Source: Lysobacterales bacterium (GTDB lineage: Bacteria; Pseudomonadota; Gammaproteobacteria; Xanthomonadales; SZUA-38). Taken from it: a stretch of DNA of 64,000 bases. Shown here one piece after another: positions 1 through 54,929 of the stretch. The stretch lies in the NCBI GenBank assembly GCA_030065125.1, contig JASJDM010000027.1, positions 1 to 64,000 of the forward strand, read 5' to 3'. The position numbers and the translations under genes were made by a program. The stretch's first letter is position 1. Each line of letters begins with the position of its first letter. The notes under the pieces were generated by a model that worked only from the letters and a program-made list of their open reading frames with translations, was not told where the DNA came from and searched no databases.

Positions 1-710
1 ACCTGCTCGCCGGCGAACTGTGCCAGATTGTAGGTGAGTGTGCGTTGTTCGCCCGGTGTCAGCTTGTACTCTTCCAGCTTGTGGTCGTTCCACCATTGGT
101 CGCCAATGATGATTTCGATCTCCAACTGAGCGCCATGTGGGATGGCGTCATTGGCGGTCAGGTCGAAAGAGAGGAATCCATAGTGATCCGGGTATAGCTG
201 AACCTTGCGCAGAGCGCCGGAATCCACGTAGCTGTCCGCCTTGAGATAGAGTTTTCCGTTGTCTACCCATGCGTGCCCGCTGGAGGGGCCATTGTTCTCG
301 TCGGATTCGTTCCAGTTGTTGAGCCAGCTCGTGTTCCCGTCGTTGGCGCTGTAACTGTGGTCGGTCTCGAACTGGTCCATCACCAGCCATTCCTCACAGG
401 AAAGGGGGTCGCCGGCAGTCTCTACGGTCAGCTTGCGGTCCCGAAACAGGCGCAGACCATCCACCCGGTCCAGCTGGTCAATCTGTGATGGCGTCAGTTC
501 GGCACTCACGGCGTTGATAATGTCGAGCTGGGCCAGTACTGGAATGTCTTTTTCCGCCAGGTGCCGTTCAATGGTGCTGATGTTCTGACCGGAGATAATG
601 TAGGACTGAGTGGCCTCGGCGGCGGAGTCTTCCTTGCCAACTACGGCCATGGTGGTGATGCCCAAAGATGCGGTCACGATTGCCGCGATCTGAATTTTTT
701 TTGTGTTCAT
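1..710 (-). CDS. secreted protein, partial (runs off left edge)
   Basis: The reading frame is open from an ATG at 708-710 to the window edge, about 236 codons, with the C-terminus missing. A GGAAGGA Shine-Dalgarno sequence lies just upstream. The N-terminus (MNTKKIQIAAIVTASLGI) looks like a signal peptide. Residues about 35-95 (YIISGQNIST, then DQLDRVDGLRLFRDRKL) resemble an I9-type propeptide of subtilisin-like proteases, which would make the missing part an S8 protease. The following 140 residues look like a beta-sandwich or jelly-roll segment rich in Asp, Asn and Trp. The protease assignment is inference because no catalytic motif is in view. It is transcribed away from the TetR/RND locus. 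Confidence 0.7.
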   Translation of the reverse strand, partial: MNTKKIQIAAIVTASLGITTMAVVGKEDSAAEATQSYIISGQNISTIERHLAEKDIPVLAQLDIINAVSAELTPSQIDQLDRVDGLRLFRDRKLTVETAGDPLSCEEWLVMDQFETDHSYSANDGNTSWLNNWNESDENNGPSSGHAWVDNGKLYLKADSYVDSGALRKVQLYPDHYGFLSFDLTANDAIPHGAQLEIEIIIGDQWWNDHKLEEYKLTPGEQRTLTYNLAQFAGEQ

Positions 711-6273: not shown

Positions 6274-7796
6274 GGCTTTGGTGACCCCGGCTTTTGGTCG
6301 CCGCGCTCCCTGCGAAAATTCCCGAAGGGACCCTGCAGATACAGCTCACCTTGGTGAGCCGCGAAAACCGTCGTTGCCACGGGTTCAAATCGCCGGCGGA
6401 ACTGGCCACTGCCCAGGGGGATCATGTGCTGACGGCGCCCGCTTCGATTCAGGTAGAGGCGGCCGTCGGCGTACTCCACGTTGAGACCGCCCGGCATGCC
6501 GCCAAACCTCCGTGTGACCTCCCGGTATTTCCCGGTCAGACGCCGCAATTCCGCCTCGGGTTGGGGAACGCCTGGCGCAAAGCTGGGTTTCAGGCCCTTG
6601 ACCAGGGCCGACTCCACGGCGGCGCGCATTTCCCTGAGGACGTCGTTGCGAAAGGCATTGATTACGAGGAAATACCCCAGCCCGGCGTCGCGGCTGTAGC
6701 CATAGTGGCTGAGGTAGCCGTCGGCGTCGCCACCATGTCCATGAAACACGAAGCCGTTTCGAACGTACGCGTAATTGCCCAGCCCGTATCCGAAGGACAC
6801 GCCATGTCGCGCCGCAAGGGTGGAAACGGGCACCTCCATGCGGGCGATGGAACCGGCGGGGAATACCTGTTTTCCGTCCAGCCGGCCCTGGCCCAGCATC
6901 ATCTGCAGGAACGGCGCCATGTCCTGGATGCGGGCGTTCATGGCACCGAACGGACGATACAGCATGTGCCAGTAGGGCAGAGGGGTTTTTCCATCGCGGT
7001 CATAACCCGCGATCAGACCCGCCATGACCTGGCGGGTGGGTTGCAGGGTAGCGGACACCATGCCCAGGGGCTCGAACACCTGTTCGGCCAGGTAGGCCTC
7101 GAAATCCCGGTTGGTGGCGACCTCCATGGCGTAAGCCGCCAACCCCGCGCCCGAGTTGGTGTAGGAGCTGTGCAGCCCCGGTGGCCAGCGCAGCAGGCGT
7201 GATTCAGGGTCCAGCCTCAGGGCCTCGTCCAGCGGCAGAGCCTGCCGGTTTTCCCATTCCACCCGGCTCATATCGGCCAGGCCGGCCGTGTGCTCCAGCA
7301 ACTGGGCAACGGTAACCGGATGGGTCTTCAGCCAGGGGTTTATGAAACGGCGCTCTCCGGTCAGGCCTGCAAACGACTGGTCAAGCTTCAGTTCATCGTC
7401 CAGTTCCAGCCGCAGGAAGGCCAGGGCGGTGAACGACTTGGTGACAGATCCGACTCGAATGTAGCGATCCGGAGTGACCGTTTGTTTTTGTGTCCAGCTG
7501 TCGATGCCGAATCCACGAACGTCGATCAGTTTGTCGACCCCGGTCACCAGCAGCGCGCCACCGGCGATGGATTCACGCTGGCGGATGCGGTCCAGCTCTG
7601 ACAGCAATTGATCGAAGGCGGCTGAGTCGAACGACGGCTTTGCGCTGAGCGGCAGGCACGAGGCCAGGCAGACCATCAGCGCGCCGAACTGGCGGAGCAG
7701 GGGGCTGATGACGGCGTCCGTCCGCGGGTCGATGGAACGCTCCGGCCTCAGTAGAGCTGGTAGGCGTAGACCAGCAGGCCGGTCAATGCCAGCCAC
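6261..7796 (-). CDS. serine hydrolase, beta-lactamase (class C/PBP) family
   Basis: A secreted or periplasmic penicillin-binding-protein-like hydrolase of up to 511 residues. The nucleophile motif is SVTK (SxxK), the second motif YTN (in SSYTNSGAG), and an HGHGGDADG stretch stands at the usual KTG/HxG position. The C-terminal 100 residues form a typical extra beta domain. The GTG start at 7796 overlaps the upstream permease gene by 49 bp and has no clear ribosome site; a hydrophobic segment (GALMVCLASCLPLSA) at about residues 38-52 may be the real signal peptide. The C-terminus (KPGSPKPGSE) is encoded partly by the 60-bp palindrome. Substrate unknown: an esterase or peptidase role is likelier than beta-lactam resistance. 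Confidence 0.85.
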   Translation of the reverse strand: MAGIDRPAGLRLPALLRPERSIDPRTDAVISPLLRQFGALMVCLASCLPLSAKPSFDSAAFDQLLSELDRIRQRESIAGGALLVTGVDKLIDVRGFGIDSWTQKQTVTPDRYIRVGSVTKSFTALAFLRLELDDELKLDQSFAGLTGERRFINPWLKTHPVTVAQLLEHTAGLADMSRVEWENRQALPLDEALRLDPESRLLRWPPGLHSSYTNSGAGLAAYAMEVATNRDFEAYLAEQVFEPLGMVSATLQPTRQVMAGLIAGYDRDGKTPLPYWHMLYRPFGAMNARIQDMAPFLQMMLGQGRLDGKQVFPAGSIARMEVPVSTLAARHGVSFGYGLGNYAYVRNGFVFHGHGGDADGYLSHYGYSRDAGLGYFLVINAFRNDVLREMRAAVESALVKGLKPSFAPGVPQPEAELRRLTGKYREVTRRFGGMPGGLNVEYADGRLYLNRSGRRQHMIPLGSGQFRRRFEPVATTVFAAHQGELYLQGPFGNFRRERGDQKPGSPKPGSE

Positions 7797-50603: not shown

Positions 50604-52133
50604 ATGGTGCGACCGATCCTGTTTCTCTGCCTGATCCTGCTGTCCGCCAGTGTCCACGCTCAGATTGATCTTCAGCTGACCCGAATCTCTGACCGGGCCT
50701 CGGTGACCGATATCAAGCACGCCGGGGACGGCAGCAACCGCCTGTTCCTGGTGAACAAGTTCGGGTTTATCGAGATCTACCGCAACGGGTCACTGCTGGC
50801 CACACCGTTCCTGGACATCCGGTCCATCATCTCCCGCTCAGGGGAACAGGGCCTGCTTAGCATGGCCTTCCCGCCGGACTATGCCCAGTCCGGCGTGTTT
50901 TACGTCTACTACACCGACCTGTCCGGATTCTCCACCATCGCCCGCTACCGGGTGTCGGACGATGCCGACGTGGCGGATCCCGAGAGCGCCGAAGTGCTTC
51001 TGACCGAGCAGCAGCCCTTTACCAACCACAATGGCGGCCGTCTGGAGTTCGGTCCCGACGGCATGCTCTATCTGGGCATCGGCGACGGCGGTGATGCCAA
51101 TGACCCGTTCGGCAACGGCCAGGACCTGAGGACGCTGCTGGGCAGCCTGATTCGCATCGACGTCAGCCAGGAAAGCGGCTACTCGGTGCCGCCGGATAAC
51201 CCGTTCCTGGGTCAGGCTGACGCCCGCGACGAAATCTGGGCTTATGGCCTGAGAAATCCCTGGCGCATGGCTTTCGATTCCATGACCGGTGACCTGTTTA
51301 TCGCTGACGTGGGACAGGACAACATCGAGGAAATCAATGTGCAGCCGGCCAGTTCCGGCGGCGGTGAGAATTACGGCTGGGCGCTGTTCGAAGGATGCGT
51401 CAGCGGCAGCTGCGACGGTACGGTGGTGCCGGCGTTCACGTACGACCACTCCGCCGGCGACTGCTCGATAACCGGCGGCCAGGTGTACCGTGGCCCGGAC
51501 TACCCCGCGCTGCAGGGCCTCTATGTCTACGGGGATTTCTGCACCGGGAGAGTCTGGGGACTGGACAGCAGCAGTTTCCAGAACCAGCTGCTGCTGGACA
51601 CGGGCACGCTCAGCAACGTGACCACCTTCGGCGAGGATCAACGCGGCAACATATATGTGGCCGGTTCCCTGGGCGTAGAGTCCGGCGTTTTCCTGATCAG
51701 CGACGGTCCGCCGGTGCAGTCCAACAGCATTCCCATTGATGGATCACTGTCCGGAACCTACGTGGTACAGGGGCTTAACGATCAGGGGTTTTTTGTCACC
51801 GTGGGATCCAACGAAAGCGGCTCTTTCGTTTTCATCGCCTGGTTCACCTTTGACGCCAGCGGCAGTCCCCGCTGGCTGGTGGGCGTTGATTTTTACGAGC
51901 CCGGGGCCAGCAGCATCACCCTGACCATGCAGGAGGTTTCCGGTCTGCCGTTCCTGGACTTTTCTGACAACACCGCGAGCCGCAATGACTTCGGCAGCAT
52001 GACTTTCACGGCGGTGGAGTGCGGGCTGTTCCAGGCGGACTACGATTTTGGTGCCAACGGCAGCGGCAGCCTGACCCTCGATCGCCTGACCAATATCGAG
52101 GGCAGGGATTGCGCGGCGTCTGGCCGGAGGTGA
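50604..52133 (+). CDS. secreted PQQ-type sugar (sorbosone/glucose) dehydrogenase
   Basis: A 509-residue exported protein: signal peptide (PILFLCLILLSASVHA), then a six-bladed propeller of the soluble glucose/sorbosone dehydrogenase family (GEQGLLSMAFPPDY, HNGGRLEFGPDGMLYLGIGD, WAYGLRNPWRMAFD, GDLFIADVGQDNIEEIN, ENYGWALFEG). After residue about 370 there is an added domain (GTYVVQGLNDQGFFV, FIAWFTFDASGSPRWLVGVD) ending LDRLTNIEGRDC, like the repeat modules of the M14 protein at 43717. CAGGAG precedes the ATG. PQQ binding is inferred from the family. Confidence 0.88.
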   Translation: MVRPILFLCLILLSASVHAQIDLQLTRISDRASVTDIKHAGDGSNRLFLVNKFGFIEIYRNGSLLATPFLDIRSIISRSGEQGLLSMAFPPDYAQSGVFYVYYTDLSGFSTIARYRVSDDADVADPESAEVLLTEQQPFTNHNGGRLEFGPDGMLYLGIGDGGDANDPFGNGQDLRTLLGSLIRIDVSQESGYSVPPDNPFLGQADARDEIWAYGLRNPWRMAFDSMTGDLFIADVGQDNIEEINVQPASSGGGENYGWALFEGCVSGSCDGTVVPAFTYDHSAGDCSITGGQVYRGPDYPALQGLYVYGDFCTGRVWGLDSSSFQNQLLLDTGTLSNVTTFGEDQRGNIYVAGSLGVESGVFLISDGPPVQSNSIPIDGSLSGTYVVQGLNDQGFFVTVGSNESGSFVFIAWFTFDASGSPRWLVGVDFYEPGASSITLTMQEVSGLPFLDFSDNTASRNDFGSMTFTAVECGLFQADYDFGANGSGSLTLDRLTNIEGRDCAASGRR

Positions 52134-52193: not shown

Positions 52194-52652
52194 TTAGATC
52201 GCAATGACCTGGCTGGTTCGGCGGCCCCGCAATACCCGCACGCGGTCACCGGGGCTGAGTGATGCGTCCATGTCCTGGATTACGGCAATGACGCCGCCGT
52301 TGTCCAGTTTTACAGTGACCTCCGCGGCAGTCTGACGGGTCCAGTGCTTTTCCGCCGCCCGCCCGGCCACGGCGCCCGCGACGGCGCCCACGGCGCCTGC
52401 AACCCGCCTGCCGCTGCCGCCACCCACGGTCCGGCCCAGGCTGTTGCCCACGGCGGCGCCACCAAGGGTTCCCACCACCGAGTGATTACCTTCCACGATG
52501 ACGGTTTCGACGGCCATCACGGTGCCTGACTGGGCTTTCAGGCTTGCTCCGATAGAACCTGGCGGATAGCTGCGATTGGGACCGTTGGCGGCACAGCTGG
52601 CGGCAAGCAAAGCCGCCAGCACGCTGATCAGAGCTCGGATTTCGAAATGCAT
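52194..52652 (-). CDS. glycine-zipper outer-membrane lipoprotein (SlyB-like)
   Basis: A 152-residue lipoprotein with lipobox LAASC (ISVLAALLAASCAANGPN). The middle has a glycine-zipper 2TM segment (GTLGGAAVGNSLGRTVGGGS, then AGAVGAVAGAVAG), and the C-terminus a small beta domain (DMDASLSPGDRVRVLRG). This is the SlyB/PcpB type of envelope protein. The ATG at 52652 has AGGAG seven bases upstream; a longer frame to 52793 overlaps the divergent gene and lacks a signal. It may stabilise the outer membrane. Confidence 0.87.
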   Translation of the reverse strand: MHFEIRALISVLAALLAASCAANGPNRSYPPGSIGASLKAQSGTVMAVETVIVEGNHSVVGTLGGAAVGNSLGRTVGGGSGRRVAGAVGAVAGAVAGRAAEKHWTRQTAAEVTVKLDNGGVIAVIQDMDASLSPGDRVRVLRGRRTSQVIAI

Positions 52653-52781
52653 TGGCCACTCCTGTGCTTCTGCATGTAACGCAAGCGGAGCCGACAGGTT
52701 GACAGGAACTTTCAATTTGGCGTTTGCGGCAGCCCTCGCTGCCGCTAGACTACGCGCCAGCAGGATTTCCGAGAGCAGCCC

Positions 52782-54929
52782 ATGACCTACCATCGCACCA
52801 CCACCATCATTCTGTGCGCCGCCGCAGTATTCCTGGCGGCCTGCCAGAAATCTGATACTGAACCGTCAGGGTCGGCGACACTGCCGCTGAAGTCTGTACC
52901 CAAAGCGGCCTGGCTGATCGACCGGCTGCCGCCGGAAACCGTGGGCTACCTGCGCATTCCCAGCCTGTGGAACGCATTGTTTGAGCCCAAGGAAGACGGA
53001 CTGCACAACGCCCAGGCCCAGGAAGAAAACCTGCGCCAGCTCGAGGCCATCAAGCAGGGATTGTCCAACAACCTTTGGAACCTGCTTCCGGCCCAGGCCA
53101 TCGGCCCGGTGCAGCTGCTGCTGGAGAAAATGAGCACGCCGCTGGAAGTGGCCGCGCTGATTCCGCCGGACGGTTCGTTTGTGCCTAACGTGCTGATGGG
53201 CACCACCCTGGAGGGCGTGGACCGGGCCGGATTTGGCCAGCTGATCGAGCAACTGACCGCCCTGAATCCCCAGCAGGTGCGGGTCCTGACCCCCATGGAC
53301 GACGCGGGCTACATGACGCTCTTTGCCGGCCCCATGCCGCTGTACATGCACTTCAGTGAGGCCAGCGGCCGCCTGTCCATGCTGTCCGGCGCATCCGCCA
53401 CCCAGGACAGCCTGACCGCCATGACCGACGGCCCGGAGACCGAGTCGCCCCTTCGCCAGCATGAATCCGGGCTGGACGCGGTCGGGCGCGGCCTGGCGGT
53501 CTGGGTGGACATGGATCGGATCTGGCCCATGGTTGCGCCCATGGCGCCTCCCGAGCAGGCCGCCATGGTCAGCGCCACGGGGCTGGACCAGCTGGATTAC
53601 CTGTACCTGGGTTCCGTCGCCAGCGGCGGCAAAGCCAGCCTGGTGGCCCACCTGCAGATGCCCCGGGTGGGATTCCGCCAGCTGCTGCCGGTGGTTTCAG
53701 GCGTGCCGGACGTGACCAGCGCGGGCGTGCCGGACTTTGCCGTCCGAATTGTTTTGCCGACCCAGCAGGAGTTCGAGCAGGCGCTGGATTACGTCCTGGC
53801 CCAGTCCGAGGACAGCGACAGCGCTCGCAAGGAACTCGCAGGATTCAAGGACCTGGTGGATCAATACCTGGGATTTGACTCGGCCAGGATCCTGGTCGGT
53901 TACGGACCCGATATAATGCTGGTGTCGGACCGGGCTGGCTACTGGGTCGCATACGAAATCCGCGACCGTGCGGCCCATGACGAGATGACGGCCGCGCTGG
54001 TAGAAAAGACAGGATCTCCGATCCAGCAGCGCAATATTGGCGGCCAGACGCTGTATCACTGGCCCATGAACACCATGACCCTGCTGGAAACGGACACTCT
54101 GCCCGACACGGTGATCCCCCCGGTGGTCAAACAGATTTTCGGCAACCTGCGGGAGCACGTCTTCTGGGTCGACGAGGGGCGCTACAGCGTGGGTGCCAGT
54201 GTGCCCCAGGTGCTGATGGCCCGGCACAGCCTGGATGATCCTGTGGACGTGGGCCGTTGGATCGGAGACAGCCTGCAGATTGACTGGTCCCATACGGTGA
54301 TCGGAGGTGCGGCGCGGACCCGCAACGTGTCGCGCAACATCTATCACTTCTACCTGCAGATGCTGTTGTTCATGGGAGACATGGCGGGTGCTGAGCTGGA
54401 TCCCTTTGCCATGCCGATCTGGACCGATGCCGGTCTGGCCGAGGAGGGGAGGCTGGGATTCCGCATCGATTCCAGTGAGTCGGCGCTGCGTCTGCAGCTG
54501 GACTACGAGGTTTCACCCCTGGAGGCGGTGATTGCCGGCAACACCATGACCAGCGTCGCCGTGGTTGGCATCCTGGCTGCCATCGCCATCCCGGCTTACG
54601 TGGACTATGAGGCCCGGGCTGCCGTGTCCGGAGCGCTGTCGGCGGCAGGATTGGTCAGGGAGCAGGTGTCGGAGTCCTACTATGCAAACGGCACCTTACC
54701 CGCTGCTGGTGAGTCATTGGCCGAAGCACTGGGGCAGGCTTCGTCCGCCAGCCGGGACGTTTACTACGAAGACGGCGTGATCAGCATCTACTTCAGTGCG
54801 GAGGCCAAGAAAGCCCTGCAGGGTAAATCGCTGCACCTGGAAGCCTCGGAAGGCGAGGGCGGCCTGGAGTGGACCTGCTACAGCCCGGACATCCCGGAAA
54901 ACCAGCTGCCTGTGTCCTGTCGCGGATAA
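52782..54929 (+). CDS. lipoprotein with C-terminal type IV pilin-like domain
   Basis: A 715-residue protein with lipobox FLAAC (Cys21) and a long periplasmic body (about 40-580) of no family I can name, rich in alpha/beta segments. At about residues 588-606 comes TSVAVVGILAAIAIPAYVDY, the pilin N-terminal helix, followed by ARAAVSGALSAAGLVREQVS, YYANGTLP and a C-terminal disulfide-type loop, WTCYSPDIPENQLPVSCRG, all as in type IVa major pilins. The prepilin cleavage site and Glu5 are not there. Thus a pilin domain has been joined to the end of a lipoprotein. Single gene, no pilus genes nearby. Confidence 0.85.
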   Translation: MTYHRTTTIILCAAAVFLAACQKSDTEPSGSATLPLKSVPKAAWLIDRLPPETVGYLRIPSLWNALFEPKEDGLHNAQAQEENLRQLEAIKQGLSNNLWNLLPAQAIGPVQLLLEKMSTPLEVAALIPPDGSFVPNVLMGTTLEGVDRAGFGQLIEQLTALNPQQVRVLTPMDDAGYMTLFAGPMPLYMHFSEASGRLSMLSGASATQDSLTAMTDGPETESPLRQHESGLDAVGRGLAVWVDMDRIWPMVAPMAPPEQAAMVSATGLDQLDYLYLGSVASGGKASLVAHLQMPRVGFRQLLPVVSGVPDVTSAGVPDFAVRIVLPTQQEFEQALDYVLAQSEDSDSARKELAGFKDLVDQYLGFDSARILVGYGPDIMLVSDRAGYWVAYEIRDRAAHDEMTAALVEKTGSPIQQRNIGGQTLYHWPMNTMTLLETDTLPDTVIPPVVKQIFGNLREHVFWVDEGRYSVGASVPQVLMARHSLDDPVDVGRWIGDSLQIDWSHTVIGGAARTRNVSRNIYHFYLQMLLFMGDMAGAELDPFAMPIWTDAGLAEEGRLGFRIDSSESALRLQLDYEVSPLEAVIAGNTMTSVAVVGILAAIAIPAYVDYEARAAVSGALSAAGLVREQVSESYYANGTLPAAGESLAEALGQASSASRDVYYEDGVISIYFSAEAKKALQGKSLHLEASEGEGGLEWTCYSPDIPENQLPVSCRG

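What the first reader, a model, noticed from the sequence alone, without database searches (positions are those of the whole stretch)
52782..54929. Type IV pilin domain fused to the end of a 580-residue lipoprotein
The C-terminal 130 residues have a pilin hydrophobic helix (GILAAIAIPAYVDY), alpha1-C region and the disulfide loop WTC...PVSC, but the prepilin leader and Glu5 are missing and a lipobox is at the protein's N-terminus. The protein would be tied to the membrane at both ends, or the pilin helix could insert in a pilus-like filament or the inner membrane. I know of no such described architecture.
Basis: partly seen in the sequence, partly recalled or inferred. Interest (0 to 1): 0.7.

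Follow-up and report, generated by a model that had tools for sequence, protein, structure and literature searches.

The report
Exported lipoprotein with pilin C-terminal tail
This gene makes a periplasmic lipoprotein whose C-terminal end is a type IV pilin that has lost the leader and the glutamate needed to become a pilus subunit; the same fusion is conserved in scattered gamma-proteobacteria that also have type IV pili, so it looks like a real, undescribed protein family rather than a sequencing error.

Summary
Window 52782-54929 encodes one 715-residue protein with a lipobox at its start and a type IVa pilin module at its end (Pfam PF00114, E=1.9e-12). It is not an assembly error. About 45 homologues share the layout: 21 relatives of the same order, 12 further genomes among 369 sampled across the class (14 of 369 in all), and Kangiella, Wenzhouxiangella, Tahibacter and Luteibacter. 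Every N-domain hit in the class-wide sample carried the pilin tail.

The pilin helix is marginally hydrophobic, with no overlap with true pilins on two scales. Glu5 is lost in 45 of 46 members, while both disulfide cysteines are kept in 45 of 46. A few members have an ordinary signal peptide instead of a lipobox. This fits a pilin module exported by Sec into the periplasm better than a second membrane span. The helix is nevertheless the most conserved stretch of the whole protein, so it has a job. All 34 carriers tested have T4aP machinery, although most of the class does too.

The best reading is an envelope-anchored pilin mimic that docks on type IV pilins or their machine. Function is inferred. 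It is a reversed, leaderless variant of the known 'modular pilin' idea.

The parts
52782..52844 (+). Lipoprotein signal peptide and lipobox (residues 1-21, FLAAC; Gln at +2)
   Evidence: Sequence. A canonical lipobox is present in about 40 of 44 aligned members; L041, L120, L122 and L130 have type I-like signals instead.
52899..54521 (+). N-domain (residues 40-580), no Pfam family; two alpha/beta units with the same order of secondary-structure elements
   Evidence: AlphaFold2 pLDDT 90.0, pTM 0.85. No Pfam match in 17 members. No PDB sequence match. Best fold matches are TP0453 (Z 10.6) and PsbP/Mog1-like lipoproteins.
54522..54551 (+). Flexible, often Gly-rich linker (about residues 581-590)
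   Evidence: pLDDT about 50 in the full-length model; variable in alignment A1.
54552..54599 (+). Leaderless pilin alpha1N remnant (residues 591-606, SVAVVGILAAIAIPAY), Glu5 missing
   Evidence: Most conserved 16-residue window of the protein (about 1.0 bit at 594-609 against 1.39 for the best window elsewhere). Marginal hydrophobicity.
54600..54929 (+). Pilin alpha1C and globular head with disulfide loop Cys699-Cys713; stop codon at 54927-54929
   Evidence: PF00114 hit; structural match to PilE; both Cys kept in 45/46.

Best explanation
The gene encodes a member of a conserved, undescribed family of exported gamma-proteobacterial proteins. Sec exports it and, in most members, signal peptidase II lipidates it, leaving the whole chain in the periplasm on a membrane leaflet. 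The pilin module is exported passively behind the N-domain, so it is neither cleaved by prepilin peptidase nor built into a pilus as an ordinary subunit; its disulfide forms in the periplasm. The conserved alpha1 remnant and the head then act as a pilin mimic: they dock on type IV pilins or on periplasmic parts of the T4aP machine and tether the lipoprotein N-domain there. Shown: architecture, conservation, loss of leader and Glu5, marginal hydrophobicity, conserved cysteines, presence of T4aP machinery in all carriers tested. Inferred: compartment and topology of the tail, the docking partner, the role.
For: Conserved fusion: all 14 N-domain hits in 369 evenly drawn class genomes carry the tail, as do 22 genomes of the own order including the window. 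Export signal always present, either lipobox or type I-like. Helix hydrophobicity does not overlap that of canonical pilins: 42 members against 61 pilins, Kyte-Doolittle 1.14-2.45 against 2.61-3.09. By contrast, most leaderless pilin tails on N-in membrane proteins (M48, RDD, DUF2628, TM2) keep a strong span. Glu5 kept in 1/46; exactly two Cys in the tail in 45/46. The helix 594-609 is the most conserved window, also when loci fetched through the helix are left out. Head dN/dS 0.12-0.18 in three pairs. PilP in 34/34 carriers.
Against: No direct evidence for a T4P partner. The gene does not lie in a conserved pil neighbourhood. PilP is also common in the class (299/369), so 14/14 is only about p=0.05. 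One head dN/dS is higher (0.56, L027/L029). The hydrophobicity is marginal rather than low, the positional weighting is approximate, and the scale values were entered from memory. One relative (L047, Saccharospirillum) keeps N-domain and helix but lacks the head, which fits a helix-only role such as membrane attachment.
Confidence: 0.45

Rival explanations
1. Double membrane attachment: lipid anchor at the N-terminus and the pilin helix as a real transmembrane span or a re-entrant segment in the inner or outer membrane.
For: A hydrophobic stretch is kept in all members and is the most conserved part. L047 keeps the helix but not the head. Members without a lipobox (L041, L120, L122, L130) would otherwise have no membrane attachment.
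Against: Marginal insertion energy in all 42 members, with no overlap with true pilins. A full span would put the conserved Cys pair in the cytoplasm. A pure anchor would keep hydrophobicity, not the exact residues A600, A602, P604, Y606 and Y609.
Confidence: 0.25
2. The pilin module is only a structural or stability domain captured by an old fusion, with no link to pili.
For: No pil neighbourhood. Tails cluster away from canonical pilins in the tree, although support is weak.
Against: The helix is the most conserved segment. All 34 carriers have T4aP machinery. The head is under purifying selection in most close pairs.
Confidence: 0.25
3. It is assembled into the T4P as a special minor pilin, for example at one end of the filament.
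For: Complete pilin fold. Tip subunits naturally lack Glu5 (PMC10191384).
Against: No leader or prepilin peptidase site. The N-domain sits on the end of alpha1 that is buried in the filament. Lipid anchor and Sec route in most members.
Confidence: 0.04
4. Assembly or frameshift artefact joining two genes.
For: None found.
Against: The same fusion in about 45 independent contigs, including isolate genomes.
Confidence: 0.01

Closest known systems
Modular type IV pilins, e.g. PilB of Streptococcus sanguinis (PMC8179133)
   Same: A pilin module joined through a short linker to an unrelated domain.
   Different: Known modular pilins have the pilin module and its class III signal at the N-terminus and are built into the pilus. 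Here the order is reversed, the leader and Glu5 are lost and export is by Sec, mostly as a lipoprotein. That survey searched only N-terminal IPR012902.
Type IVa major pilins (PilE/PilA)
   Same: Head fold, alpha1C, disulfide loop and the GILAAIAIPAY motif.
   Different: No leader, no Glu5, first five residues of alpha1 missing, weaker helix, 560-residue domain in front.
TP0453 of Treponema pallidum and PsbP/Mog1-like lipoproteins (DcrB, TiME, SciW)
   Same: Lipoprotein; fold similarity to the N-domain (TP0453 Z 10.6, 5.5 A over 215 residues, 8% identity).
   Different: No sequence similarity, weak superposition, one unit rather than two, no pilin tail.
C-terminal leaderless pilin tails on M48 peptidase, RDD, DUF2628, TM2 and GYF_2 proteins (Marinobacter, Duganella, Pseudoxanthomonas and others)
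   Same: Pilin module without leader at the C-terminus of another protein.
   Different: Most of these front parts are membrane proteins that present the pilin helix from the cytoplasm and keep a strong span; the N-domain here is exported.

Membership tests
Type IV pilin (assembled subunit) | Class III signal peptide with prepilin peptidase site (Gly | Phe/Met) | tested here: not met
   No leader; the helix follows a 580-residue domain.
Type IV pilin (assembled subunit) | Glu5 | tested here: not met
   Asn in the window; Glu in 1 of 46 members.
Type IV pilin (fold) | Pilin head, alpha1C and D-region disulfide | tested here: met
   PF00114 full profile, PilE Z 12.9, two Cys in 45/46.
Bacterial lipoprotein | Lipobox with invariant Cys | tested here: met
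   FLAAC at 17-21; canonical in about 40 of 44 members. Lipidation itself is not testable here.
Modular pilin (PMC8179133) | N-terminal pilin module plus an extra C-terminal domain | tested here: not met
   The order is reversed.
PsbP/Mog1-like lipoprotein (TP0453) | Shared fold over most of the domain | tested here: inconclusive
   Z 10.6 at 5.5 A over 215 residues; Foldseek E 3e-6, TM 0.51 on the target; no sequence support.

The most novel reading that the evidence does not exclude
A family of Sec-exported pilin mimics: pilin modules uncoupled from prepilin processing and used in the periplasm as docking domains that attach a lipoprotein to type IV pilins or their machine.
Probability: 0.35. 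Interest if true: 0.7.

Novelty: new variant of a known kind. Interest (0 to 1): 0.5.

Why it matters
Pilins are thought of as proteins that reach the periplasm only through their own leader and the inner membrane. A conserved family that sends a pilin head out behind a lipoprotein signal breaks that rule and gives a simple test: does it touch the pilus machine from the outer or inner membrane side? It also shows that surveys keyed on the N-terminal pilin motif miss C-terminal pilin modules, which here also occur on M48, RDD, DUF2628, TM2 and GYF_2 proteins.

Tried and rejected
Assembly error or missing stop: rejected by relatives. Plasmid origin: tblastn of the full protein found no plasmid record. 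Viral origin: only ordinary pilin-like tails in the IMG/VR hits. Pil operon context: neighbours are conserved only within families. Sequence repeat between the two N-domain units: hhalign gives no signal although the secondary-structure order repeats. A named Pfam family for the N-domain: none. Literature searches for a described lipoprotein-pilin fusion found none in the open library held; subscription papers are not covered. The tree of pilin heads has too few columns to resolve how often fusions arose. The N-domain search in 349 phylum genomes hit only two, both already known.

Full report
What is there. Window 52782-54929 (+) is a single 715-codon frame. It starts with a lipoprotein signal (lipobox FLAAC, Cys21). 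A 540-residue domain follows, then a short linker, and it ends in a type IVa pilin module: Pfam PF00114 over its full length (E=1.9e-12), Neisseria PilE as best PDB sequence match, and PilE as best structural match of the tail (Z 12.9, 2.2 A, 104 residues). The full-length model has mean pLDDT 81.8 and pTM 0.69; the N-domain alone has 90.0 and 0.85.

Is it real. The genome search found full-length relatives in about 21 of 100 relatives. A class-wide even sample of 369 genomes gave 14 N-domain hits, and all 14 carry the pilin tail. Named carriers include Wenzhouxiangella sediminis, Kangiella taiwanensis, Tahibacter caeni, Luteibacter and Saccharospirillum impatiens. Frames are uninterrupted. 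In close pairs the N-domain has dN/dS about 0.08-0.36 and the head 0.12-0.56, most below 0.2, with dS near saturation in several. The junction is therefore not an artefact.

Anatomy of the tail. Counting from the conserved Pro22 (P604), alpha1 begins at pilin position 6: the leader and the first five residues, including Glu5, are gone. Position 5 is Glu in only 1 of 46 members; two cysteines are kept in 45 of 46, the exception being L047, where the head is absent. I compared the best 19-residue stretch of the helix in 42 exported fusions with 61 canonical pilins fetched in the same searches. An approximate Hessa-type energy gave median +0.43 (-0.86 to 1.94) against -1.91 (-2.57 to -1.00); Kyte-Doolittle gave 1.14-2.45 against 2.61-3.09. 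There is no overlap. Four rows printed under 'N-in fusion' (L004, L030, L031, L119) belong to the exported family. Of the other 18 N-in tails, 15 score -0.88 or lower. The scale values and weighting are approximate, so this is support, not proof.

Conservation. The window 594-609 is the most conserved 16-residue stretch of the protein (about 1.0 bit; best elsewhere 1.39), also when loci fetched through the helix pattern are excluded. Exact residues (A600, A602, P604, Y606, Y609) are invariant in 22 aligned members. A mere anchor would not need this, so I infer a specific contact, most simply with other pilin helices or with a Pil protein.

Export and location. The N-domain always follows an export signal. 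About 40 of 44 have a canonical lipobox; L041, L120, L122 and L130 have type I-like signals. The residue after the Cys is Asp in 10 cases and other residues in the rest, so inner- or outer-membrane residence is not settled; the window protein has Gln, which the E. coli rule (own knowledge) would send to the outer membrane.

N-domain. It has no Pfam family and no PDB sequence relative. Its best fold match is TP0453 of Treponema (Z 10.6, 5.5 A over 215 residues; Foldseek E 3e-6), then TM1622, DcrB, TiME, SciW and PsbP. These are mostly PsbP/Mog1-like exported proteins. The match is weak and does not give a function.

Link to type IV pili. PilP was found in all 34 carriers tested, but also in 299 of 369 class genomes, so the association alone is weak (about p=0.05 for 14 of 14, ignoring kinship). 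The gene has no conserved pil neighbours.

What is known. Modular pilins carry extra domains behind an N-terminal pilin module (PMC8179133; PMC10191384). The present family is the reverse and leaderless. Leaderless pilin tails also occur on M48, RDD, DUF2628, TM2 and GYF_2 proteins, which appear not to be described either in the library searched.

Verdict. A real, conserved, undescribed architecture. Best mechanism: an exported, mostly lipid-anchored pilin mimic that docks on pilins or the pilus machine (0.45). Main rivals: double membrane attachment, or a structural leftover.

Noticed in passing
G000:C123:115708-116106 (L006:1495-1893 +): A 133-residue pilin-head protein (PF00114 E=3.9e-15) right behind a lipoprotein-like signal LLGVAGC, with no pilin helix: a pilin head that appears to be a lipoprotein itself. 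No close relative in 40 relatives searched.
   Followed up: partly
L047 (Saccharospirillum impatiens), ORF ending at 7771: Homologue that keeps the N-domain and the pilin helix but stops right after it (YSDI*); no pilin head downstream in any frame.
   Followed up: partly
L050, L053, L060, L070, L082, L084, L086, L093 and others: Leaderless pilin tails at the C-terminus of M48 peptidase, DUF2628, RDD, TM2 and GYF_2 proteins in gamma- and beta-proteobacteria; possibly a wider undescribed theme.
   Followed up: partly
L180:1109-1645 (IMGVR_UViG_3300014502_000030): A canonical prepilin gene on a viral contig, next to a hypothetical protein that may be a capsid decoration protein.
   Followed up: no
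window 50604-52133 and 52194-52793: Neighbours: a glucose/sorbosone dehydrogenase-type protein (PF07995), conserved beside the fusion in three relatives of the same family, and a glycine-zipper protein on the opposite strand.
   Followed up: partly
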